Part shown: in pieces, positions 38,529 to 49,861 of the stretch
How positions within the stretch are numbered: position 1 is the first letter of the stretch
How the letters are laid out: every line of letters starts with the position of its first letter
Assembly (NCBI GenBank): GCA_000961575.1
Contig: LADP01000019.1
Location: 62,001 to 126,000, forward strand
Length of the DNA: 64,000 nt
Reading direction: 5' to 3'
DNA from: Peptococcaceae bacterium BRH_c8a
GTDB lineage: Bacteria > Bacillota > Desulfotomaculia > Desulfotomaculales > Desulfallaceae
Position numbers and translations under genes: made by a program
The notes under the pieces: model-generated
Databases searched by the model: none
Told to the model about the DNA's origin: nothing
Seen by the model: only the letters and a program-made list of their open reading frames with translations

Positions 38529-38894
38529 TTATTTTGCCTTGAGGCAGGAATGCATTCCTTTTTCCATACGCAGACAGGCACCGTATTCCCGATGCGTCTG
38601 CCGATTTTCCAAGTTATCACGTAATTGATCAAATAAGTCAGTATTAGATGCCAACCGTTGTTCAAAAACTTTTTGATCCAAGGAATAAAATACCCAGCGG
38701 CCATCTTTATCATCTTGAACTATACCGCTTTTCTTTAAGAGCCTTAGGTGGTGGGAAACAGCCGGCTGAGACATACCTAAGTCATCCATGATTTCACAAA
38801 CACACATATCCCGTCTGGACAACATCAGGATAATTTTTAGCCGGGTTTCATCAGCTAAAATTTTTAAGAAATCCAGCACATCTTTTTTCATCAT
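38529..38894 (-). CDS. arsR: ArsR-family metalloid-sensing repressor
   Basis: The 121-residue protein is an ArsR/SmtB winged helix: FLKILADETRLKIILMLS, then MCVCEIMDDLGMSQPAVSHHLRLLKKSGIV. The CVC pair in the alpha-3 helix is the classical As(III)/Sb(III) site of E. coli-type ArsR. The Cys-containing tail (GACLRMEKGMHSCLK) adds two more Cys. It follows the HesB-like selenoprotein gene by 61 bases and is probably co-transcribed with the ACR3 gene. It is the natural candidate for the four ATAAR-N6-CTTAT operators. Confidence 0.88.
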   Translation of the reverse strand: MMKKDVLDFLKILADETRLKIILMLSRRDMCVCEIMDDLGMSQPAVSHHLRLLKKSGIVQDDKDGRWVFYSLDQKVFEQRLASNTDLFDQLRDNLENRQTHREYGACLRMEKGMHSCLKAK

Positions 38895-38955: not shown

Positions 38956-39255
38956 TTAACTTGTTAAAAAGTCTATCCCCTCAACCATTATTTTTTTAAA
39001 CCATAGCAGTTTACTTAAAGTAATTATTAACCCGTCATCTTTTATGTTCAAGCCATTTTTAATGTGTACTTTGATATCTTTTGTTTCATACGTTCGATAT
39101 TCTTCTTCGCCCACCGGGCGTTGTGGTTCCACGAACAGCACGGGCGCGGAACCACAACGATTTCACCCCCGCCATACCGTGGTTACCAGCAGGTGGCCGC
39201 CTTTGTTAATGATATAATCCCGGGCTTGGGGCTCGATGGTTATTTTCAATGCCAT
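38956..39255 (-). CDS. HesB-like selenoprotein (in-frame UGA as Sec31)
   Basis: ATG 39255 starts 3 bases after the ACR3 stop and the frame runs 100 codons to TAA at 38956, with one in-frame TGA at 39163-39165 (codon 31). The part before it (ITIEPQARDYIINKGGHLLV) and after it (VFVEPQRP-like LFVEPQRPVGEEEY, DIKVHIKNGL, LLWFKKIMVEGIDFL) read as one HesB-like/CC-Se-motif protein; UGA stands in the WRG-U-NRCGS segment. A perfect 12-bp hairpin begins 3 bases after the UGA, as expected of a bacterial SECIS. Conventional gene calls would split or drop it. Function unknown; neighbours suggest metalloid handling. Confidence 0.8.
39119..39159 (-). promoter_or_regulatory. Bacterial SECIS hairpin of the HesB-like selenoprotein
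   Basis: On the minus strand CGTTGTGGTTCC (39159-39148) pairs perfectly with GGAACCACAACG (39130-39119), leaving a 17-base loop that begins with G. The stem begins 3 bases after the UGA, and the loop 15 bases after it. Position and form agree with bacterial SECIS elements, which lie in the coding sequence just downstream of the Sec codon and bind SelB. Confidence 0.75.
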
Positions 39256-39258
39256 CAC

Positions 39259-40365
39259 CTACTTCCCTTTGGCCGCCGAGGGAGTTTTAACCTCAAACCA
39301 GTGTCTGGTGCGCAAGCAGAACCTTACCAGCAACAGCATTAAAGGCACCTCAATAAGTACGCCTACCACAGTAGCCAGGGCGGCGCCGGAAGCAAGACCA
39401 AACAGGGTGGCGGCTGTGGCTATGGCCACCTCAAAATGGTTGCTGGCCCCAATCATAGCCGTGGGTGCGGCATCCTCGTAGCTAAGTTTAAGGAATTTGG
39501 CAGCCACGTAACCGATGATAAAAATAACCACTGTTTGGATAAACAGGGGAACGGCAATCATGCCGATGACCAGGGGTTGCTGAAGAATAACTTCTCCCTG
39601 CAGCATAAAAAGAAAAATCAAAGTAATTAAAAGGGCGATCATAGATACTTTGCCGGTATGTTTTAAAAACACGGCTTCGTACCATTCCACTCCTTTTCTT
39701 TTAAGCAGGTTGCTGCGGGTAAAATACCCCGCCACCAGAGCCACCCCAACATAAAATAATATCGCGTAAGCCAAAGTGGCAAAGGGGATGGTTATATCGG
39801 ATACACCCAGCAAAAGGCTGCCTAGCGGCGCGTACAAAAACAACATGGTTAGCGAATTTATGGCCACCATCACCAGGGTATGGCCCATAAACCCCTTGGC
39901 CAGATAACTCCAGACCAGTACCATCGCGGTACAGGGAGCAATACCCAGCAAAATCATCCCGGCTATGTAGGAGTCGGCCATGTCGGCAGGGATAAAAGGT
40001 GCCCAGATGTAACGCATAAATATAATGGCAAAAAATAGCATGGTAAATGGCTTGATGGCCCAGTTCACTACTAAAGTTAATAATACCGGTTTTGGTGCCC
40101 GAATGGCCTGGGTTACTTCACTGAAATCAATCTGCACCATAATTGGGTACATCATCAGGAAAAGCAATACCGCAATGGGAATGTTGACCGCTGTGCCCGG
40201 CACTTGCATGGCGTTAAGGGTTTCTGCCACGTTGGGAAAAGCTGCTCCCAGGGCGATGCCGATAACGATACATAGTAATACCCACAAGGTCAGGTATTTT
40301 TCAAAAACCCCCAGGTTTCTTTCTTTTTGTAGCTGCCTTATTTTTACAGCTGCTTGTTGATCCAT
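39259..40365 (-). CDS. acr3: ACR3-family arsenite efflux permease
   Basis: The 368-residue protein has ten membrane segments and the ACR3 signature GIAPCTAMVLVWSYLAKG with the essential Cys near residue 150, plus IGASNHFEVAIATAATLFGLASGAALATVVGVLIEVPLMLLLV at the end. ACR3 exports arsenite, driven by proton motive force. ATG 40365 follows AAAGGAGTTG; a longer frame to 40407 is less likely. A promoter with an ATAAR-N6-CTTAT operator lies about 110 bases upstream. The HesB-like selenoprotein gene follows 3 bases after its stop. Confidence 0.9.
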   Translation of the reverse strand: MDQQAAVKIRQLQKERNLGVFEKYLTLWVLLCIVIGIALGAAFPNVAETLNAMQVPGTAVNIPIAVLLFLMMYPIMVQIDFSEVTQAIRAPKPVLLTLVVNWAIKPFTMLFFAIIFMRYIWAPFIPADMADSYIAGMILLGIAPCTAMVLVWSYLAKGFMGHTLVMVAINSLTMLFLYAPLGSLLLGVSDITIPFATLAYAILFYVGVALVAGYFTRSNLLKRKGVEWYEAVFLKHTGKVSMIALLITLIFLFMLQGEVILQQPLVIGMIAVPLFIQTVVIFIIGYVAAKFLKLSYEDAAPTAMIGASNHFEVAIATAATLFGLASGAALATVVGVLIEVPLMLLLVRFCLRTRHWFEVKTPSAAKGK

Positions 40366-40471
40366 AAAAACAACTCCTTTCTGTATTAACTTGTTATTAA
40401 AATTCATCTATTAGTCCTAAAATATTGGTTTTGAAATTCAAACCTTAATCATCTATTATGGCCCATGATAT

Positions 40472-40554: not shown

Positions 40555-41766
40555 TTAAGGGCAGGCAATCAACTGTCTGGACCAGAGACATTCGGCGCAG
40601 GAAGGGCTGTTGCCCCAACAATCACTGTCATTGTTATCCACGTAAGAGCAGCCGTCCATGAACTTGCAATCGGTACAGGAGGGGAACTGAAAATCATTAA
40701 CCGCCCGCCGGAAGTTAATGTAAATGGGTTCGGTCCAAATATGATCCAGAAGTTCTTTAGCCACGTTGCCCAGGTAAAAAGGATACATTTCCTTGATGCG
40801 CCCATAAATATAGCAGTTGTACGAATGCATTAACGCATAACAGGGTGAAACAAATCCCTTGTTATTGATTACCATTGCCCTGTCCTCAACAAATTTGCAG
40901 TGCCTTTCGGTGCGCAATTTGATATGCGGCATTTGGGCTTGAACCATCAGCATAGCATCATTGCCGAAAGGTGTGCCTGTATCGTCTATGTCATAAAGGA
41001 TTTGATCTTTCATTTCTTCATTATAAGGCAGCACATTGGTAACAATCATCCGGCGCGCTTTTAATTCCCGCACCAGTTTGGCCAGAGTGGGAAGTTTATG
41101 ATAATTATCCTTGGTGGCCACAAACTCAATGCCCAGTTCAGGATAGCGTACGCCCCTTTGGGCTTTTATTTCATTCAGCAGCTTCAAATTGTCCAGCACC
41201 CCGTGGAAATCCGCCCCCTGCCGGATATGGCAGTATTCCTCCTCGTCCGGGCCGTCCAGCGAAACAAATATCATATCCAGCTTGAGGTCAATCAGCTTAT
41301 TGATCACCTCTGCTGATAATAAAGAACCATTGGTAATCACTTCAGTCCGCAAACCTCTGGATTTTATCGTTTTTAGCATTTCCAAAAACCGCGGGTGGCT
41401 GAAGGGTTCTCCGAAACCGCCGAAATGTACACACTCAAGCGCCGGCAGTAGATCCAAGCTCTGGGCGATGCGCTCAAAAACACTCCACTCCATGTGGGCC
41501 AGATCGTCCTGCCAGGAATTTCTGATGCAGGTTGTGCAGGCAAAGTTGCACACCGTGGTGGCTTCAATATATAATTTTTTAACATCAACGACCCGGGGGA
41601 TAATTTGGAAACCATTTTGAGTTTTAATGCATAACGCCTCTACAGCTTCGTTGTTACCTTTAGTTTGACTAATATCCGAGGGCAAAATCATCTGGCCGCC
41701 CTGCTTAATGGAGACAGTTTGACCCGCTTGAAAGCTGTTGCCTGTAATTACATATCCCTTTGACAT
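40555..41766 (-). CDS. Radical SAM/SPASM protein, putative metalloenzyme maturase
   Basis: The 403-residue protein has an N-terminal beta-rich domain of about 60 residues (GYVITGNSFQAGQTVSIKQGG), the radical SAM core with the cluster motif CNFACTTC near residue 73, GGFGEPFSHP, NGSLLSAE and SLDGPDEEEYCHIR, and a Cys-rich SPASM tail (CTDCKFMDGC, CWGNSPSCAEC). The overall shape is that of maturases linked to tungsten-containing aldehyde oxidoreductases, but no such oxidoreductase is in the window. Its own operator upstream ties it to the lipoyl/selenoprotein regulon. Confidence 0.75.
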   Translation of the reverse strand: MSKGYVITGNSFQAGQTVSIKQGGQMILPSDISQTKGNNEAVEALCIKTQNGFQIIPRVVDVKKLYIEATTVCNFACTTCIRNSWQDDLAHMEWSVFERIAQSLDLLPALECVHFGGFGEPFSHPRFLEMLKTIKSRGLRTEVITNGSLLSAEVINKLIDLKLDMIFVSLDGPDEEEYCHIRQGADFHGVLDNLKLLNEIKAQRGVRYPELGIEFVATKDNYHKLPTLAKLVRELKARRMIVTNVLPYNEEMKDQILYDIDDTGTPFGNDAMLMVQAQMPHIKLRTERHCKFVEDRAMVINNKGFVSPCYALMHSYNCYIYGRIKEMYPFYLGNVAKELLDHIWTEPIYINFRRAVNDFQFPSCTDCKFMDGCSYVDNNDSDCWGNSPSCAECLWSRQLIACP

Positions 41767-41957: not shown

Positions 41958-42704
41958 TTATTCATCCGACAAGGCTACACGGTTGTCTACCCGTACAAAT
42001 GTAATATCCAACTCCTGCTCAAAACCGGCAATAATTGCTTCCTGAACTTCTTCAGCCGTCACCGGGCGGGCTAAAATCTCTTCCAGGCTGGTTACTTTGC
42101 ATTTTAAAAGCTCGGCCTCGGTACCGGCAAATATCTTGGCCAGCAGGTCACCCTGTGGCTTCAATAAAATTGAACCGTGCTGCAGCAGTGCAGCGCCAAT
42201 TCTTTTCTGGGCGCTGCCGATAATTTTCCTGCCACACCAGGTGATATCCCCTGGTGTGGCCAGGGCAAAGCAGGACGCCGGGAAAGGTGCCCCGTATTTC
42301 TCTTCACCAAATGATGCGTTTACTCCTAAAAGGGCCAGGCCGGCCAGTAGACCCCGGCAGATGTAACGGTAGGACTCCGCAAGGCTGGCCGGCATATCCC
42401 GTCCGGCCCGGGCCGTCACACTGTAGGTGAGATCGCCCCAGTGCAGCACGGCCCGCCCGCCGGTAATTCGTTTTACGGTCACAATGCCCAGTTCGTCCAG
42501 TGCCTTTTGATCCAGGCCGTCCTCTTGTTGAAAATACCCCAGGGAAACGGCGGGTGGCGACCACCGGTAAAACCGCAGAGTGGGGGTTGAGTTCGCACCA
42601 GACTGCTCGGCAAGCAGCGCCTCGTCGACAGCCATGTTTGTCTGGGGCTCCTGCGCATCCTGGATGATTAGACGCCAGACTTTTCCCCGCTCACTTCCCG
42701 TCAT
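41958..42704 (-). CDS. Lipoate-protein ligase / lipoyl transferase (LplA/LipM family)
   Basis: The 248-residue protein has the biotin/lipoate ligase fold: TNMAVDEALL near residue 20, RFYRWSPPAVSLGYFQ, VKRITGGRAVLHWGDLTYSV (lipoyl-AMP loop) and KIIGSAQKRIGAALLQHGSI with the catalytic Lys. It attaches lipoate or octanoate to carrier lysines. ATG 42704 follows AGGAGTG and overlaps the lipA end by 14 bases; the longer frame lies inside lipA. With LipA next door, the pair supplies lipoyl groups to the GcvH-like carrier. Confidence 0.85.
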   Translation of the reverse strand: MTGSERGKVWRLIIQDAQEPQTNMAVDEALLAEQSGANSTPTLRFYRWSPPAVSLGYFQQEDGLDQKALDELGIVTVKRITGGRAVLHWGDLTYSVTARAGRDMPASLAESYRYICRGLLAGLALLGVNASFGEEKYGAPFPASCFALATPGDITWCGRKIIGSAQKRIGAALLQHGSILLKPQGDLLAKIFAGTEAELLKCKVTSLEEILARPVTAEEVQEAIIAGFEQELDITFVRVDNRVALSDE

Positions 42705-43587
42705 GGGCAACAACACTCCTGTAATGATCCCCGGCGTGGTAGGAACTGCGCACCAGCGGTGCGGCGGCCACGCTTTTAAAGCCCAGAACCAGTGCAATTT
42801 GCTCCCAGTGTTTATATTCCTCCGGCGGCACATAACGCTGCACCGGGTAGTGCCGCAAGGACGGCGCCAGGTACTGGCCGATGGTTAACATATCTACCCC
42901 GGCCTGCAGTAAATCCTGGAGCACCCGGTGCACTTGGGCTTCTGTCTCCCCCAGCCCCAGCATGAGGCCCGATTTGGTGATTAGCGCTGGATCCATTAAT
43001 TTGGCCGCCTCCAGCACCTCCAAAGAGCGGCGGTACCGCGCGTCCGGGCGAACCTCCCGGTATAAGTGGGGCACCGTTTCAATGTTATGGCCGAAAACGT
43101 CGGGACGGGCGTCAATGACGATTTTTAAGCTGCCGGCAGCTCCCTTAAAGTCTGGTGTCAGCACCTCCACGGTCGGTGGTCTATCCAATTGCCTCAGCTC
43201 ATGAATGACCGCGGCAAACTGGCCGGCCCCGCCGTCGGGCAGGTCGTCCCTGGTCACCGAAGTTACCACCACATGGTCAAGCTTTAAATTAGCCGCTGCC
43301 CGGGCCAGCCGGTGCGGCTCTTCGCTGTCCGCCGCCACGGGCCTGCCCTTGTCTACCGCGCAAAACCGGCAGTTTCTGGTGCAAATATTACCTAAAATCA
43401 TGAACGTGGCCGTGCCGCGAAAGAAGCAGGCACCCCGGTTGGGGCAGCGCGCGCTCTCACAGACGGTGTGCAGCTGCAAGTTTTTTATGGCATCGCGGGT
43501 TTTGGTCAGGGAAGGGTGGCCAAGGCCGCCGCATCTTTTTCCGCCGCGCACCATCACCAGGAGCCAGGCCGGCGCCGGTTGTGACAT
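42691..43587 (-). CDS. lipA: Lipoyl synthase (LipA)
   Basis: The 298-residue enzyme has both LipA clusters: the auxiliary-cluster motif CESARCPNRGAC near residue 43 and the radical SAM motif CTRNCRFC near residue 69, with VVVTSVTRDDLPDGGA, TPDFKG, GHNIETV and LMLGLGE. The C-terminal RSSYHAGD carries the conserved RSSY serine. LipA inserts two sulfur atoms into octanoyl-lysine. It is 4 bases after lpdA on the minus strand. It lacks the longer N-terminal part of some relatives. Confidence 0.93.
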   Translation of the reverse strand: MSQPAPAWLLVMVRGGKRCGGLGHPSLTKTRDAIKNLQLHTVCESARCPNRGACFFRGTATFMILGNICTRNCRFCAVDKGRPVAADSEEPHRLARAAANLKLDHVVVTSVTRDDLPDGGAGQFAAVIHELRQLDRPPTVEVLTPDFKGAAGSLKIVIDARPDVFGHNIETVPHLYREVRPDARYRRSLEVLEAAKLMDPALITKSGLMLGLGETEAQVHRVLQDLLQAGVDMLTIGQYLAPSLRHYPVQRYVPPEEYKHWEQIALVLGFKSVAAAPLVRSSYHAGDHYRSVVAHDGK

Positions 43588-43591
43588 AACG

Positions 43592-44992
43592 TTAACTCCT
43601 TTCCGCCGGGGGCATGTGGATGGCCAAACCCAGCGCCCCTTGAGCCGTCTCCAATACGGCTTCGGCCAGGGTGGGATGGGTGTGGATGGTCTCTACAATT
43701 CCCCGCACGCCCACCTTGTTCCGCATCGCCAGGGCCACCTCGGCAATTAGATCCCCGGCATGCGGCCCGACGATATGCCCGCCCAGGAGCTGTTCGGTTT
43801 TGCTGTCTACCACCAGTTTCACCAAGCCTTCCCATTCGCCCATAGCCTGGGCCATGCCCAGCGACTTAAACGGGAACGAGACTGACGTGACCGTAAACTG
43901 CTCCTTGGCCTTATCCTCGCTCATACCCACCGCGGCGTACTCGGGGGTACTAAACACGCAGCGAGGCACCACCCGGTAATCCATAGCCGTCTGGTAACCC
44001 ATAGCGTGTTCAGCGGCGGTAATCCCTTCAGCGAATGCCACGTGAGCCAGCCACATTTTTCCGGTTATATCGCCCGCCGCGTACACGCCGGGTACACCGG
44101 TAAGCATGTGTTCATCCACCGGCAGCGGCTTGCCGTCGGCCTGCAGACCGATATTTTCCAGGCCGATGTTTTCCACGTTGGCCCGGCGGCCCGCGGCCAC
44201 CAGCAGTTTTTCAGCTTCTAGGGCGCCGCCCCCGGCCAGGGTAACCGTAACGTTAGGGCCGCCCTGGACCTGCTCCACCCGTACCCCGGTCATTACCTTA
44301 ACCTTGCGGCGTTTGAGCATTGATTGCAGGTAAGTGGCCGCCTCGGCGTCCTCCCGGGGCAGAATGCGGTCTTCCATTTCCAGCAGGGTTACCTTGCTGC
44401 CCAGTTCGGCCATGATTACCGCCATCTCCACACCTACAGCGCCGCCGCCTAGTACCAGCAGCGAAGCGGGAACCGCAGTTAGTTCCAGAATATCATCGGT
44501 TGTCATTACCCCCGGTATATCACCGGCCAAGGGGCCGGGGCGAGCCGGGCGTGAACCGGTGGCCAGCACCACTTTACGGGCGCAGACCCTGGTTACGCCG
44601 GTCTCCCCGGTTACTTCAATCACCCCGGGCTCCAGCAAACGCCCCGTGCCCGGGTACAGATCAACCCGGTGCTGTTTAAAAAGGTGGTGGATCCCGCCGC
44701 GCAGCAGTTCCACCACCCTGTTTTTGCGGGCGATAATGGCCGGCACGTCGGGAGAAACGTTTTCCACGTTGATGCCGTAGGTCTTGCCCTTGCGGGCCAG
44801 ACGCAGCACTTCCACCGAAGCCTTGATAGTCTTGGTGGGAATGCAGCCGCGGTTGAGGCAGACACCGCCCAGGTATTCCTGCTCCACCACCGCCACCTTG
44901 CCGCCAAGCTGGGCTGCGCGGATGGCGCCCTGGTAACCCGACGGCCCGCCGCCCATAAAAACCACGTCATAGATATCCGTTGTTTTACTCAT
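43592..44992 (-). CDS. lpdA: Dihydrolipoamide dehydrogenase (LpdA)
   Basis: The 466-residue flavoprotein has FMGGGPSGYQGAIRAAQLG for FAD, the redox disulfide GGVCLNRGCIPTKT near residue 45, a second nucleotide site LGGGAVGVEMAV and the dimer-interface catalytic pair HTHPTLAEA. It reoxidises dihydrolipoyl groups with NAD. It lies between the OsmC gene (13 bases) and lipA (4 bases). No 2-oxoacid dehydrogenase or GcvP/GcvT is near, so its partner is most likely the GcvH-like protein at 46303. Confidence 0.93.
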   Translation of the reverse strand: MSKTTDIYDVVFMGGGPSGYQGAIRAAQLGGKVAVVEQEYLGGVCLNRGCIPTKTIKASVEVLRLARKGKTYGINVENVSPDVPAIIARKNRVVELLRGGIHHLFKQHRVDLYPGTGRLLEPGVIEVTGETGVTRVCARKVVLATGSRPARPGPLAGDIPGVMTTDDILELTAVPASLLVLGGGAVGVEMAVIMAELGSKVTLLEMEDRILPREDAEAATYLQSMLKRRKVKVMTGVRVEQVQGGPNVTVTLAGGGALEAEKLLVAAGRRANVENIGLENIGLQADGKPLPVDEHMLTGVPGVYAAGDITGKMWLAHVAFAEGITAAEHAMGYQTAMDYRVVPRCVFSTPEYAAVGMSEDKAKEQFTVTSVSFPFKSLGMAQAMGEWEGLVKLVVDSKTEQLLGGHIVGPHAGDLIAEVALAMRNKVGVRGIVETIHTHPTLAEAVLETAQGALGLAIHMPPAERS

Positions 44993-45434: not shown

Positions 45435-45878
45435 TTATTTCCCCCCGTCGTTCGGCTTGCTGATTATTTCATCCACCTTTTTAGCGATCTCACCCGCCAC
45501 CAGGTCAATGGCCTGCTGGTCCATATCCACCAGCGTGCGGGCCGAGCCCGGGGCGTTGATGCCGTGCTCTTTGAGTAAATCGGTAATTACTATCGAGTGT
45601 TCCGGCTTTTTGCCGCCCAGTTTTTCGGTTATTTTTTGGCCGCAGCGCTTGTCACAGCCGTCCACGGTGATGGTGGGGAAGTTCTCCACGAAACCCCGCT
45701 CTTCCTTACCGTTGTTGATAAACAGCGGCAGGCAGATGGTCACTGTGTTATTGGGCTTGATTTGATCCAGCACCTTGCGGCAGGCAAACCGAGTCAGTGT
45801 CCCCTCCGGCAGTTCTTCACCATTGCAGGGGATAATGCCCACTTTTTTCGGTGGGGTGATTTCAACCAGTTCAAGCAT
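45435..45878 (-). CDS. DGC-domain putative zinc/metal-binding protein (copy 2)
   Basis: The 147-residue protein shows the DGC family pattern: VGIIPCNGEELPEGTLTRFACRKVLDQI near the start and ITVDGCDKRCGQKITEKLG in the middle, where the DGC-x2-C Cys pair gives the family its name. About four conserved Cys could bind metal. ATG 45878 follows AAGGAGGG and overlaps the first DGC gene by 8 bases. Function unknown. Confidence 0.78.
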   Translation of the reverse strand: MLELVEITPPKKVGIIPCNGEELPEGTLTRFACRKVLDQIKPNNTVTICLPLFINNGKEERGFVENFPTITVDGCDKRCGQKITEKLGGKKPEHSIVITDLLKEHGINAPGSARTLVDMDQQAIDLVAGEIAKKVDEIISKPNDGGK

Positions 45879-46290
45879 CAGCTGATCCCTCCTTTTTGGC
45901 CGGGCAGTCGATCTCCAACGCCAGGTCACTGGCCAGGATCTCCACCAGTTTACGGCCCGGTTCGCCCAGATCCAGTATGCCGGTGGGCTTAAGGTCTCGG
46001 TGGTGTTTAAAAGTGTTAATTACCCTGACGGCCCGGTCGGGCTTTTTGCCTGCTGACTCTACGTTTTTGCGGGCGCAGTCCTGGGCACACCCGTCCAGGG
46101 TGATGACCGGGTTGTTTTTAACCAGTTCCACCGCGTCGGGGTCGCCGATCATCAGTTTGGCCAGGCAGGTGGTGGTTACCTTGCCCGGGCACAGATCTTC
46201 CATCAGAGTATAAGTGGACTGGCGTCCGATTTCCCCGTATGGTTTGCCGATCCCGCTGCAGGGCAATACTACAGTTGTTTTGTTCGCCAT
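45871..46290 (-). CDS. DGC-domain putative zinc/metal-binding protein (copy 1)
   Basis: The 139-residue protein is a second member of the family, with VVLPCSGIGKPYGEIGRQSTYTLMEDLCPGKVTTTCLAKL and VITLDGCAQDCARKNVESAG. It differs from copy 2 outside the Cys regions, so the two probably form a heteromer or have separate partners. ATG 46290 has GGGAG 8 bases upstream; a GTG at 46299 is possible. It follows the GcvH-like gene by 12 bases. Confidence 0.78.
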   Translation of the reverse strand: MANKTTVVLPCSGIGKPYGEIGRQSTYTLMEDLCPGKVTTTCLAKLMIGDPDAVELVKNNPVITLDGCAQDCARKNVESAGKKPDRAVRVINTFKHHRDLKPTGILDLGEPGRKLVEILASDLALEIDCPAKKEGSADA

Positions 46291-46302
46291 TGCTGTCACT
46301 CC

Positions 46303-46758
46303 CTATTTCGTCATTTCATTTTTAATCTTTTCTTCCATCAGCGGGAAATAAGTTTTGGCATCCATTAATGCCTGCTTGGCACCGGCCAGGTCCGCGGGTT
46401 CAATTTTGTAAATCCAGCCTGACCCATAAGGGTCCTGGTTGATTTGCTGCGGCTCGTCTTCCAGGGCACCGTTCACCTCTTTAATCACGCCGCTTACCGG
46501 CGCGACTAGGGTCATAGTGGTCTTGATGGTTTCCATGCTGCCCATTTCCCCGCCTTGCTTGACTGCGGCGCCGGCTTCCAGAAGCTCAACGAAGGCCACA
46601 TCGCCGCCGGTCTTCTGCATATAATCAGTAATCCCCACGGTAACCAAACCGTTTTCTTCCTGCTTTACCCAGCACTCGTCCTGGTGGTACAGGTAATATT
46701 CCTTGACCCGGAAAGCAAACTTATCGTAATTAAATTCCATATATCCTGTTTCACTCAT
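46303..46758 (-). CDS. GcvH-like lipoyl carrier protein
   Basis: The 151-residue protein has the GcvH fold, with GLVTVGITDYMQKTGGDVAFVELLEAGAAVKQGG and the lipoylation hairpin GSMETIKTTMTLVAPVSG, where Lys79 is the predicted lipoyl site, then VNGALEDEPQQINQDPYGSGWIYKIEP. The N-terminus (YDKFAFRVKEYYLYHQDECWVK) is not that of glycine-cleavage H proteins and has an extra Cys. No GcvP or GcvT lies near, as with the LbpA-type carriers of sulfur metabolism. The ATG has AAGGAGCGG upstream. Confidence 0.85.
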   Translation of the reverse strand: MSETGYMEFNYDKFAFRVKEYYLYHQDECWVKQEENGLVTVGITDYMQKTGGDVAFVELLEAGAAVKQGGEMGSMETIKTTMTLVAPVSGVIKEVNGALEDEPQQINQDPYGSGWIYKIEPADLAGAKQALMDAKTYFPLMEEKIKNEMTK

Positions 46759-47365: not shown

Positions 47366-48361
47366 TTAGTTGCTTGTTTCCATTGCTGGCGTAACGTTTT
47401 GCGCCCAGTATTCCCGCAAGTAAGGGGTCAGCCTGTAAAAACCCGCCATGAAAAGCACCTGAATTAGCGGTTTAATGGCAATGATCATCACCGTGAGCGG
47501 CGGGAAAAACACCACCGCCAGTGCCAGGGCGATGGAAATGTTTTTACCGCTGACCCCGTAGGCCAGGGCTACCATATCCGGGTAATTGGTGCGGGTCAGC
47601 CGGGCATATAACACCGAACTGCTGAACAGCAGCGTATAGAAAACCACCAGTGGTATGGCAATTATGCCCAGGTATTGCGGGTTGTGCAACAGGGTTACCG
47701 ACTCGGCCATCATGGAGATAAAGAATACCAAGTACATGCCCAGGGCGGAAACCGCCGGGAACACCGGTTTTAATGCCATAAACTTTTGAGATCCCCATTT
47801 TTTTACCAGCCACACCCTGGTCAGGTTGCCCAGGATCAGGGGGATGACGAGGGTAAACAAAATAGTTTGCATCATTTGCCAGGCGTTCACCGGTACGTAT
47901 TTGCCGGCCAGAAAACTCATCCATAGCGGAATCAGCACAATACCGGCCAAAAAACTGGTTACTGTAATAACCAGGGTCATGGGCGCGTTTCCCTTGGCCA
48001 TAGCCGTCCAGGCCACGATCATGCCCGCACAGGGAACCACCCCGGTAAGGATCAGGCCCACCGCAAAGTCAGGGTAACCGGCTAAAAACACCAAAGCCAA
48101 CAATGCCGCCAGCAAAGGGGAAATTAAATAATTAAAAACCATTACTACCGACATAAACCCCACTCGCTTGGCGGCCCCGGCAACCTCATTAATTTTAATG
48201 CCCACCATCATAGGGTACAGCATAACGAATAGAGCCACTGGGTACAACACCTGCAGTTGTTTGCCAACCCCCGGTAAAATATAGCCCACCAGCAGCCCGA
48301 GAACAATTACCCCCATTAATAGCTTAATCATTTGCTTGTTTATAAATTGAGCTACGCTCAC
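47366..48361 (-). CDS. ACR3-like (BASS superfamily) permease, second copy
   Basis: The 331-residue protein has ten membrane segments and the ACR3-type half-signature GVVPCAGMIVAWTAMAKG with the Cys in the same place as in the first ACR3 (GIAPCTAMVLVWS), and SGKNISIALALAVVFFPP at the second crossing point. It is distant from the first copy, so it may export another anion such as an organoarsenical or thiol-arsenic species. The GTG start at 48361 follows GGGAGGG. Its own promoter has the shared operator. Confidence 0.8.
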   Translation of the reverse strand: MSVAQFINKQMIKLLMGVIVLGLLVGYILPGVGKQLQVLYPVALFVMLYPMMVGIKINEVAGAAKRVGFMSVVMVFNYLISPLLAALLALVFLAGYPDFAVGLILTGVVPCAGMIVAWTAMAKGNAPMTLVITVTSFLAGIVLIPLWMSFLAGKYVPVNAWQMMQTILFTLVIPLILGNLTRVWLVKKWGSQKFMALKPVFPAVSALGMYLVFFISMMAESVTLLHNPQYLGIIAIPLVVFYTLLFSSSVLYARLTRTNYPDMVALAYGVSGKNISIALALAVVFFPPLTVMIIAIKPLIQVLFMAGFYRLTPYLREYWAQNVTPAMETSN

Positions 48362-48451
48362 TTTTGTTCCCTCCCCAGTGCCTAAAAATTGCAGATATAT
48401 GAAGAATGAAGCCGGCAAATTAACATCCGTTCTCTAGGGCACTTAATGAAA

Positions 48452-48518: not shown

Positions 48519-48612
48519 TATTAATATCAGGAAGATAATACTATAAAAAATCGATTTGCCATGATACAAAACAATGGATACTCCCTTGAGTCCCGCAACA
48601 AGGAAAAAAAGT

Positions 48613-48633
48613 GGGCAGGTCTTTAACCCGCCC
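48613..48633 (-). terminator. Terminator of the DUF2703 gene
   Basis: On the minus strand GGGCGGGTTAAAGACCTGCCC forms a 4+3 bp stem with one G-T pair, followed by ACTTTTTTTCC. It lies 25 bases after the TGA at 48659 but inside the longer unshifted frame that runs to 48541, which argues that the longer frame is not the real gene end. Confidence 0.65.
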
Positions 48634-48658
48634 AACTACTATATATTCTTTCCACGTT

Positions 48659-49266
48659 TCAGCAGCATTTGCTATTGCCACAACCGCAGCAAGCATCGTT
48701 TTCTGATTGCAATACGTTACTATCGGTTTGCCTGATTGTTGTTTTTGTATGGCCGCATAAAAACGTTTCAAGTTGTCCGGCAATATATATTCTTGCTCTG
48801 TTGCATTTGAAGGGTGGCGTACACCCCCGTACACTTCCTTGAGAATTGCTTCAATGATCATGGCTTTGGGCGGAACGGTGTAATCCTTGCCCTGATAAAC
48901 CCAAACCCGGCAGTCTACATCATCACCGCAAAGGTCTCCGCAAGACTCACAAAGACTTTCTTTTACCTCCAGTTGAATATCACGCCCGTTGATACGAATA
49001 GTAGGAGAGCTTACAAATTTCCAAGCCCTGGCCAGTTCCTCGCTATGCACATTGATTTTGTTCACCACTACATCAACACCTGTGGCTTGAAGCACCTTGG
49101 AAACCTCTAAAACGGCTTCATCAAGGCTTGAGTCGGTTCCCTGGCACAGGGTACAAACACTTAAATCCAGGTATAAAAAGTCAATAATAATTTGTTTTTG
49201 AATATCCTTAATTTCACTGCAGCAGTCGGGACCGCAACAACCGCCTGAATTTTGGACTATTATAAT
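48659..49266 (-). CDS. DUF2703 protein, probably frameshifted near the C-terminus
   Basis: The frame begins with NSGGCCGPDCC and continues DLSVCTLCQGTDSSLDEAVLEVSKVL, VHSEELARAWKFVSSPTIRINGRDI and CESCGDLCGDDVDCRVW, the Cys-rich thioredoxin-like DUF2703 pattern. Adding one A to the A5 run at 48742-48746 shifts the reading to ENDACCGCGNSKCC and TGA at 48659, just before a terminator; unshifted, the frame runs through that terminator to 48541. The ATG at 49335 lies in the loop of the preceding terminator, so the start may be the ATT at 49266 after GGGAG. Mutation or sequencing error are both possible. Confidence 0.6.
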
Positions 49267-49324
49267 CCACTCCCTATATTTTAGTTTGATAAACTTCTCA
49301 TATCTAAAGACGGCAGATAAAATA

Positions 49325-49349
49325 AAAGGACGCATATTCTACGTCCTTT
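49325..49349 (-). terminator. Terminator of the sigma-factor gene
   Basis: AAAGGACG (49325-49332) pairs with CGTCCTTT (49342-49349) around a 9-base loop; on the minus strand TTATTTTATC follows. It is 15 bases after the sigma-factor stop and contains the ATG that a gene finder would use for DUF2703. Confidence 0.7.
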
Positions 49350-49363
49350 AGATTCAACAAAAT

Positions 49364-49861
49364 TTAACATGCACTGCTTTTGTGTTTGTAGTCTATAATA
49401 CTGCCTGAACGGTCAAACTCTAAATCACAGCAGCCTAGCAGCATCTCCTTAAGCTTTCCCCTGGCTCTTTGCACCCTGGACTTGGCCCCGGTTAATGAAA
49501 TGCCGGTTCTTGCGCCCAGTTCCTTTTGAGTTAGGTTTTGGTATTCTGTCAAAAATATGGCCTGTTTATATTTTTCCGGCAAGTAACTAATCATGTTTTT
49601 CAAGCAATAAGCAATTTCTGCATTGGCGTTTACTTCGGACCAGGGTTCGTTGACCAGATCATCTGGAAGTGGGGTTAATGCTAATGTTCTGTCTCGTCTG
49701 CGGTAATAATCAACAATCGCATTTCTTGTTATTCTGTAGATCCAGGGCTGGATTTTGTTTTGGTTTTGCACACTAGCGATATTGTTATGAATCTTACAAT
49801 AGATATCCTGTAGAATATCCTCGGCGTCATATTCGTTTGGGACACGTCTTTTAATGAGCAT
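49364..49861 (-). CDS. SigZ-like ECF sigma factor, N-terminus apparently shortened
   Basis: The 165-residue protein has region 2 (YDAEDILQDIYCKIHNNI, IQPWIYRITRNAIVDYYRRR) and region 4 (LPEKYKQAIFLTEYQNLTQKELGARTGISLTGAKSRVQRARGKLKEML) of a SigZ-type sigma factor, with a Cys pair after region 4 (LLGCCDLEFDRSG). SigZ proteins normally begin about 15 residues earlier; here the frame opens at IKRRVPNEYD and a stop codon lies directly before the ATG. No good ribosome site is seen. It could be a remnant or use an unseen start. Confidence 0.7.
   Translation of the reverse strand: MLIKRRVPNEYDAEDILQDIYCKIHNNIASVQNQNKIQPWIYRITRNAIVDYYRRRDRTLALTPLPDDLVNEPWSEVNANAEIAYCLKNMISYLPEKYKQAIFLTEYQNLTQKELGARTGISLTGAKSRVQRARGKLKEMLLGCCDLEFDRSGSIIDYKHKSSAC

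What the first reader, a model, noticed from the sequence alone, without database searches (positions are those of the whole stretch)
38956..39255. In-frame UGA with a perfect SECIS-like hairpin in a HesB-like gene
Reading through one TGA (39163-39165) joins two halves that make a coherent 99-residue protein starting 3 bases after the ACR3 stop. A 12-bp perfect hairpin begins 3 bases past the UGA. Both coding potential on each side and the RNA structure point to selenocysteine. Standard gene calling leaves only a 61-residue remnant. Seen directly: frame, UGA, hairpin. Known: HesB-like/CC-Se motif families contain Sec members. Inference: a role in metalloid or thiol chemistry.
Basis: partly seen in the sequence, partly recalled or inferred. 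Interest (0 to 1): 0.9.

Follow-up and report, generated by a model that had tools for sequence, protein, structure and literature searches.

The report
Selenoprotein gene in arsenite-efflux operon
A stop codon inside a small gene next to an arsenic exporter is almost certainly read as the rare amino acid selenocysteine; the protein belongs to an already catalogued but unstudied selenoprotein family, and its placement suggests a role in handling arsenic or metals.

Summary
A 99-codon frame (39255-38956) with one in-frame UGA (39165-39163, codon 31) lies 3 nt behind an ACR3 arsenite-exporter gene and just ahead of an ArsR gene. Three bases after the UGA is a 15-bp hairpin (first 12 pairs Watson-Crick). 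The selenocysteine reading is strongly supported. The read-through protein matches NCBIfam NF041239, 'CC/Se motif family (seleno)protein' (E=4e-17), both halves contributing. The genome has selA-selB, two tRNA-Sec genes and two selD genes. A congeneric genome keeps the UGA, the hairpin (one compensatory pair change) and the ACR3-CC/Se-ArsR order, with purifying selection on both sides of the UGA. 45 of 113 class genomes carry the family; Sec-type members keep a SECIS-like stem after UGA (28 of 37 with all six pairs), Cys-type members do not (2 of 29). So: a new member of a known selenoprotein family, not a new kind. It is not in the HesB selenoprotein family TIGR01911, but profile comparison supports distant HesB-like ancestry. 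The added point is the recurrent order efflux pump - selenoprotein - ArsR, with ACR3 or a P1B-ATPase as pump, suggesting metal(loid) handling. That function is inferred, not shown.

The parts
38956..39255 (-). CC/Se motif family selenoprotein gene, 99 codons incl. Sec31, ATG at 39255 (alternative GTG 39258), stop TAA 38958-38956
   Evidence: translation; NCBIfam NF041239 E 4.3e-17, 62 bits vs cut-off 40; both halves match on their own; Ka/Ks 0.13 before and 0.15 after the UGA against the congeneric homologue
39163..39165 (-). in-frame UGA, read as selenocysteine (codon 31, motif UxxC: U-N-R-C)
   Evidence: conserved in L009/L055; aligned with UGA or Cys in most family members
39119..39159 (-). 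SECIS-like hairpin inside the coding region: 15-bp stem, 11-nt loop; the loop can close by a lone C-G pair to a 5-nt loop GUGCU, its G at 22 nt after the UGA
   Evidence: fold z -3.3, z -5.9; compensatory U-A to C-G change in L009; fits the bSECIS constraints quoted in PMC13188914 if the lone C-G pair is counted; otherwise the loop (11 nt) exceeds the 9-nt limit
39259..40407 (-). ACR3 family arsenite efflux transporter, directly upstream in the same direction
   Evidence: TIGR00832 E 5.9e-112, above cut-off
38529..38894 (-). ArsR/SmtB-family metalloregulator directly downstream
   Evidence: NF033788 E 2.6e-29, above cut-off

Best explanation
The gene encodes a 99-residue selenoprotein of the CC/Se motif family (NF041239), probably transcribed with acr3 and arsR. 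At codon 31 the ribosome meets UGA; SelB carrying Sec-tRNA(Sec) binds the hairpin 3 nt downstream and selenocysteine is inserted, giving the motif U-N-R-C. Without selenium or SelB, translation would stop after 30 residues. The protein most likely uses the Sec/Cys pair in a distant HesB/IscA-like scaffold to bind a thiophilic metal or metalloid (here probably arsenite), as a buffer or delivery protein for the exporter, or to act in redox chemistry supporting efflux. Sec insertion is strongly supported by comparative evidence but not shown by experiment. Co-transcription is inferred from gene spacing and conserved order. The metal(loid) role is inferred from operon context only. The confidence given is for Sec insertion and family; the metal(loid) role stands at about 0.6.
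For: Family match across the UGA and by each half; selB (387.8 bits) next to selA (612 bits), two tRNA-Sec genes with TCA anticodon, two selD genes each with one in-frame TGA; congeneric homologue with 86% identity, same UGA, purifying selection on both sides, all 6 codon differences in the 15 codons after the UGA synonymous, one compensatory stem change; Sec members retain a six-pair stem with CGU at the loop start (28/37 all paired, 31/37 CGU), Cys members do not (2/29); downstream hairpins more stable relative to shuffles after UGA than after Cys codons (p 0.02); order exporter-CC/Se-ArsR here and in the congener with ACR3, and in L066 with a P1B heavy-metal ATPase; ATPase-ArsR-CC/Se in L072.
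Against: No expression, proteomic or 75Se data. The window's stem is unlike the short stem of most family members, with the loop GU one codon earlier. Some family members have neither Sec nor Cys at the position (second copies in L076 and L078; L084 has Trp), so the residue is not strictly essential to the family. Most family members in the class do not sit beside ars or metal genes, so the arsenic role may be local. The structure prediction failed (pLDDT 33).
Confidence: 0.93

Rival explanations
1. UGA is a true stop: the gene is a decayed remnant, or two short separate ORFs.
For: Standard gene calling gives only a 61-aa remnant; no expression data. Some family copies elsewhere (L057 region) carry TAA/TAG and look decayed.
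Against: Same UGA in the congener with Ka/Ks about 0.15 after it; the family HMM crosses the UGA; UGA is the recurrent in-frame stop in the family, found in dozens of members.
Confidence: 0.04
2. The UGA is read through without SelB (near-cognate Trp or other suppression), and the hairpin only slows the ribosome.
For: The sequence alone cannot tell the inserted residue; one relative (L084) has Trp at the place of the UGA.
Against: Complete Sec machinery incl. tRNA-Sec; Cys, not Trp, is the usual alternative residue; the SECIS-like stem is kept in Sec-type and lost in Cys-type members.
Confidence: 0.02
3. The hairpin is a transcription terminator or attenuator between acr3 and arsR rather than a SECIS.
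For: Very stable stem downstream of an exporter gene.
Against: No U-tract follows it and the scan finds no minus-strand terminator there; it sits inside a constrained reading frame exactly 3 nt after the UGA, and the congener keeps it with a compensatory change.
Confidence: 0.02
4. Selenoprotein, but unrelated to arsenic: a redox or Fe-S type protein that happens to lie in the ars operon.
For: Most of the roughly 75 family members examined in the class do not neighbour ars genes; distant HesB-like profile.
Against: Exporter-CC/Se-ArsR order in two genera of different families with unrelated exporters, plus further CC/Se genes near P1B ATPases.
Confidence: 0.35

Closest known systems
NCBIfam NF041239, CC/Se motif family (seleno)protein (Moor_selen_rel; listed as first predicted in Moorella thermoacetica)
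   Same: Full-length HMM match above cut-off, length, position of Sec/Cys, SECIS-like stem after the UGA
   Different: Motif here is UxxC (U-N-R-C), while the review lists CxxU for the family; much longer hairpin; sits in an acr3-arsR operon
HesB-like selenoprotein family TIGR01911
   Same: Small protein, Sec at the matching place in a G-rich stretch; profile-profile alignment puts Sec on Sec (score 27.4; best of 200 column shuffles 13.9)
   Different: No TIGR01911 match; lacks the UxGP motif; only 17% identity over the aligned columns
Selenoproteins tied to metal(loid) handling (arsenate reductase and arsenite methyltransferase selenoproteins, Sao proteins)
   Same: Sec in thiophilic metal(loid) contexts (PMC13188914)
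   Different: Different protein families

Membership tests
NF041239 CC/Se motif (seleno)protein | Score above the curated cut-off of 40 bits | tested here: met
   62 bits, E 4.3e-17, profile positions 2-90 of 91
NF041239 CC/Se motif (seleno)protein | Sec or Cys at the active position with a nearby second Cys | tested here: met
   U31 and C34; the order is UxxC instead of the CxxU listed in the review
Bacterial selenoprotein | Sec machinery selA, selB, selC, selD in the genome | tested here: met
Bacterial selenoprotein | bSECIS: apical loop 3-9 nt, upper stem 4-16 bp, G in the first two loop positions, spacing 16-37 nt, MFE <= -7.5 kcal/mol | tested here: inconclusive
   Stem 15 bp, MFE -25.6, spacing within range; the loop is 11 nt unless the lone C-G pair predicted by the fold is counted, which gives a 5-nt loop starting with GU; constraints from PMC13188914
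Bacterial selenoprotein | Homologues with Cys at the Sec position | tested here: met
   about 30 members with Cys at or near the site against 43 Sec-type
Bacterial selenoprotein | Selenium found in the protein | not testable with these tools
   needs 75Se labelling or mass spectrometry
HesB-like selenoprotein TIGR01911 | HMM match above cut-off 66.35 bits | tested here: not met
   no match for the protein or in the whole genome
HesB-like selenoprotein TIGR01911 | UxGP motif | tested here: not met
   UNRC instead

The most novel reading that the evidence does not exclude
A selenocysteine-containing metal(loid) chaperone that serves different efflux pumps: the same small selenoprotein sits between the exporter and ArsR whether the pump is ACR3 or a P1B-type ATPase, so selenium would be used to hand thiophilic metal(loid)s to the pump, or to protect it.
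Probability: 0.3. Interest if true: 0.65.

Novelty: new member of a known kind. Interest (0 to 1): 0.38.

Why it matters
It gives an uncharacterised selenoprotein family a testable function: the operon ACR3 - CC/Se - ArsR, and its P1B-ATPase counterpart, point to arsenite or heavy-metal handling by a Sec/Cys pair. It is also a clear case for correcting gene annotation, since a standard-code ORF list keeps only a 61-residue fragment.

Tried and rejected
Plus-strand reading of the interval: full of stops, and the plus-strand fold is unremarkable, so the finding lies on the minus strand. Rfam found nothing relevant. Pfam has no significant match; one distant member gives only a weak Fe-S_biosyn hit (E 0.02). 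No plasmid matches. A first codon comparison was off by one codon and was redone. The terminator reading of the hairpin was rejected. The Haft papers on selenoprotein neighbourhoods are not held, so an earlier mention of this operon could not be excluded; three text searches found none.

Full report
What is there. The gene lies on the minus strand. From ATG 39255 the frame runs 30 codons to UGA 39165-39163 and a further 68 codons to TAA 38958-38956, 99 residues in all with U31. The acr3 stop codon is at 39261-39259, so the ATG is 3 nt away; a GTG directly after the stop is possible too. In the congener the start is a GTG overlapping the ACR3 stop. A hairpin of 15 pairs (12 Watson-Crick, then G-U, C-G, G-C) starts 3 nt after the UGA. 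Its energy beats all 200 shuffles. Only one other of 1,666 TGA triplets in the window has as stable a hairpin within 45 nt, and it lies in no long frame.

Family. NCBIfam NF041239, 'CC/Se motif family (seleno)protein', matches residues 5-94 of the read-through product at E 4.3e-17, above its cut-off. The 30-residue upstream part alone matches at E 0.0019 and the 68-residue downstream part at 1.4e-9, in consecutive parts of the profile, so the UGA lies inside one protein. The 2026 review PMC13188914 lists this family among prokaryotic selenoproteins, 'hypothetical protein predicted in Moorella thermoacetica', motif CxxU. The 2022 review PMC9312934 has an earlier form of the same entry. So the kind is known.

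Machinery. The genome (4.17 Mb, 48 contigs) has selB and selA side by side on contig 7, two tRNA-Sec genes above the Rfam cut-off, both called tRNA-SeC with anticodon TCA by ARAGORN, and two selD genes, each with one in-frame TGA. A third Rfam match is an ordinary tRNA-Ser. The genome therefore has what it needs to decode UGA as Sec.

Conservation. The close homologue found in the genome collection is from a Desulfotomaculum MAG (L009; L055/G011, same genus as the window's genome, gives the same sequence), 86% identical and with the UGA in the same place. Ka/Ks is 0.13 before and 0.15 after the UGA. In the 15 codons after the UGA all six codon differences are synonymous, and one stem pair changes from U-A to C-G. 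The order ACR3 - CC/Se - ArsR is conserved.

Family-wide view. 45 of 113 genomes of the class carry the family. In the fetched set there are 43 Sec-type sequences and 30 with Cys at or near the site. In the register of the conserved proline, 28 of 37 Sec members keep all six pairs of a short stem with CGU at the loop start in 31, against 2 of 29 Cys members. That the stem goes with the UGA is the strongest family-level evidence for a SECIS. The counts are not corrected for relatedness, so they overstate independence. The window and L009 have a different, longer stem whose loop GU lies one codon earlier.

Relation to HesB. TIGR01911 (HesB selenoproteins, UxGP) does not match this protein or any place in the genome. 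But an HHalign comparison between the CC/Se profile and HesB-type selenoproteins of the class aligns 87 columns end to end and puts Sec on Sec; score 27.4 against a best of 13.9 in 200 column shuffles and 6.7 for the reversed profile. So 'HesB-like' is plausible as a distant relation and wrong as family membership. HHalign's own probability is only 45%.

Context and function. Here the order is ACR3 - CC/Se - ArsR. In L066 (another family of the same order) it is P1B heavy-metal ATPase - CC/Se (19 nt apart) - ArsR; in L072 ATPase - ArsR - CC/Se; in L068 and L069 such ATPases lie nearby too. The ATPases fall in the heavy-metal/cadmium-type families (TIGR01525, TIGR01512 above cut-off). Most family members elsewhere have no such neighbours among those looked at. 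The inference is that at least this branch helps metal(loid) efflux, through a Sec/Cys pair binding or reducing a thiophilic species. Nothing here tests that.

Verdict. A real selenoprotein gene by all comparative evidence, shortened by standard-code gene calling, a new member of a known family, in an informative operon. The 0.93 confidence applies to Sec insertion and family; the metal(loid) role stands at about 0.6 and the specific chaperone mechanism at about 0.3.

Noticed in passing
window 47366-48418 (-) and 48541-49335 (-): A second ACR3/SBF-type permease (TIGR00832 104.9 bits, below cut-off) next to a DUF2703 protein that also hits the 'DF family (seleno)protein' model below cut-off; with a sigma-70-like gene at 49364-49861 this looks like a second metal(loid) cluster.
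   Followed up: partly
window 45435-46758 (-): Two DGC-domain proteins and a GcvH-like protein, close to lipoyl synthase, lipoate-protein-ligase-like and dihydrolipoyl dehydrogenase genes (41958-44992): a lipoyl-linked cluster.
   Followed up: partly
window 40555-41766 (-): Radical SAM/SPASM protein, TIGR04317 tungsten cofactor oxidoreductase maturase (above cut-off), upstream of ACR3; also upstream in the congener.
   Followed up: no
window 58079 (-): Another TGA followed by a very stable hairpin (-28.4 kcal/mol) but only 18 open codons before and 20 after.
   Followed up: no
L057 (G018:C13:24000-36000): Several CC/Se family copies in one locus, some with TAA/TAG inside and apparently decayed, others Cys-type, with ArsR and ACR3 about 2-3 kb away.
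   Followed up: partly
L076, L078, L062: Neighbouring pairs of CC/Se genes: Sec-type beside a copy lacking Sec/Cys at the site (L076, L078, opposite strands), and two Cys-type copies in tandem (L062).
   Followed up: no
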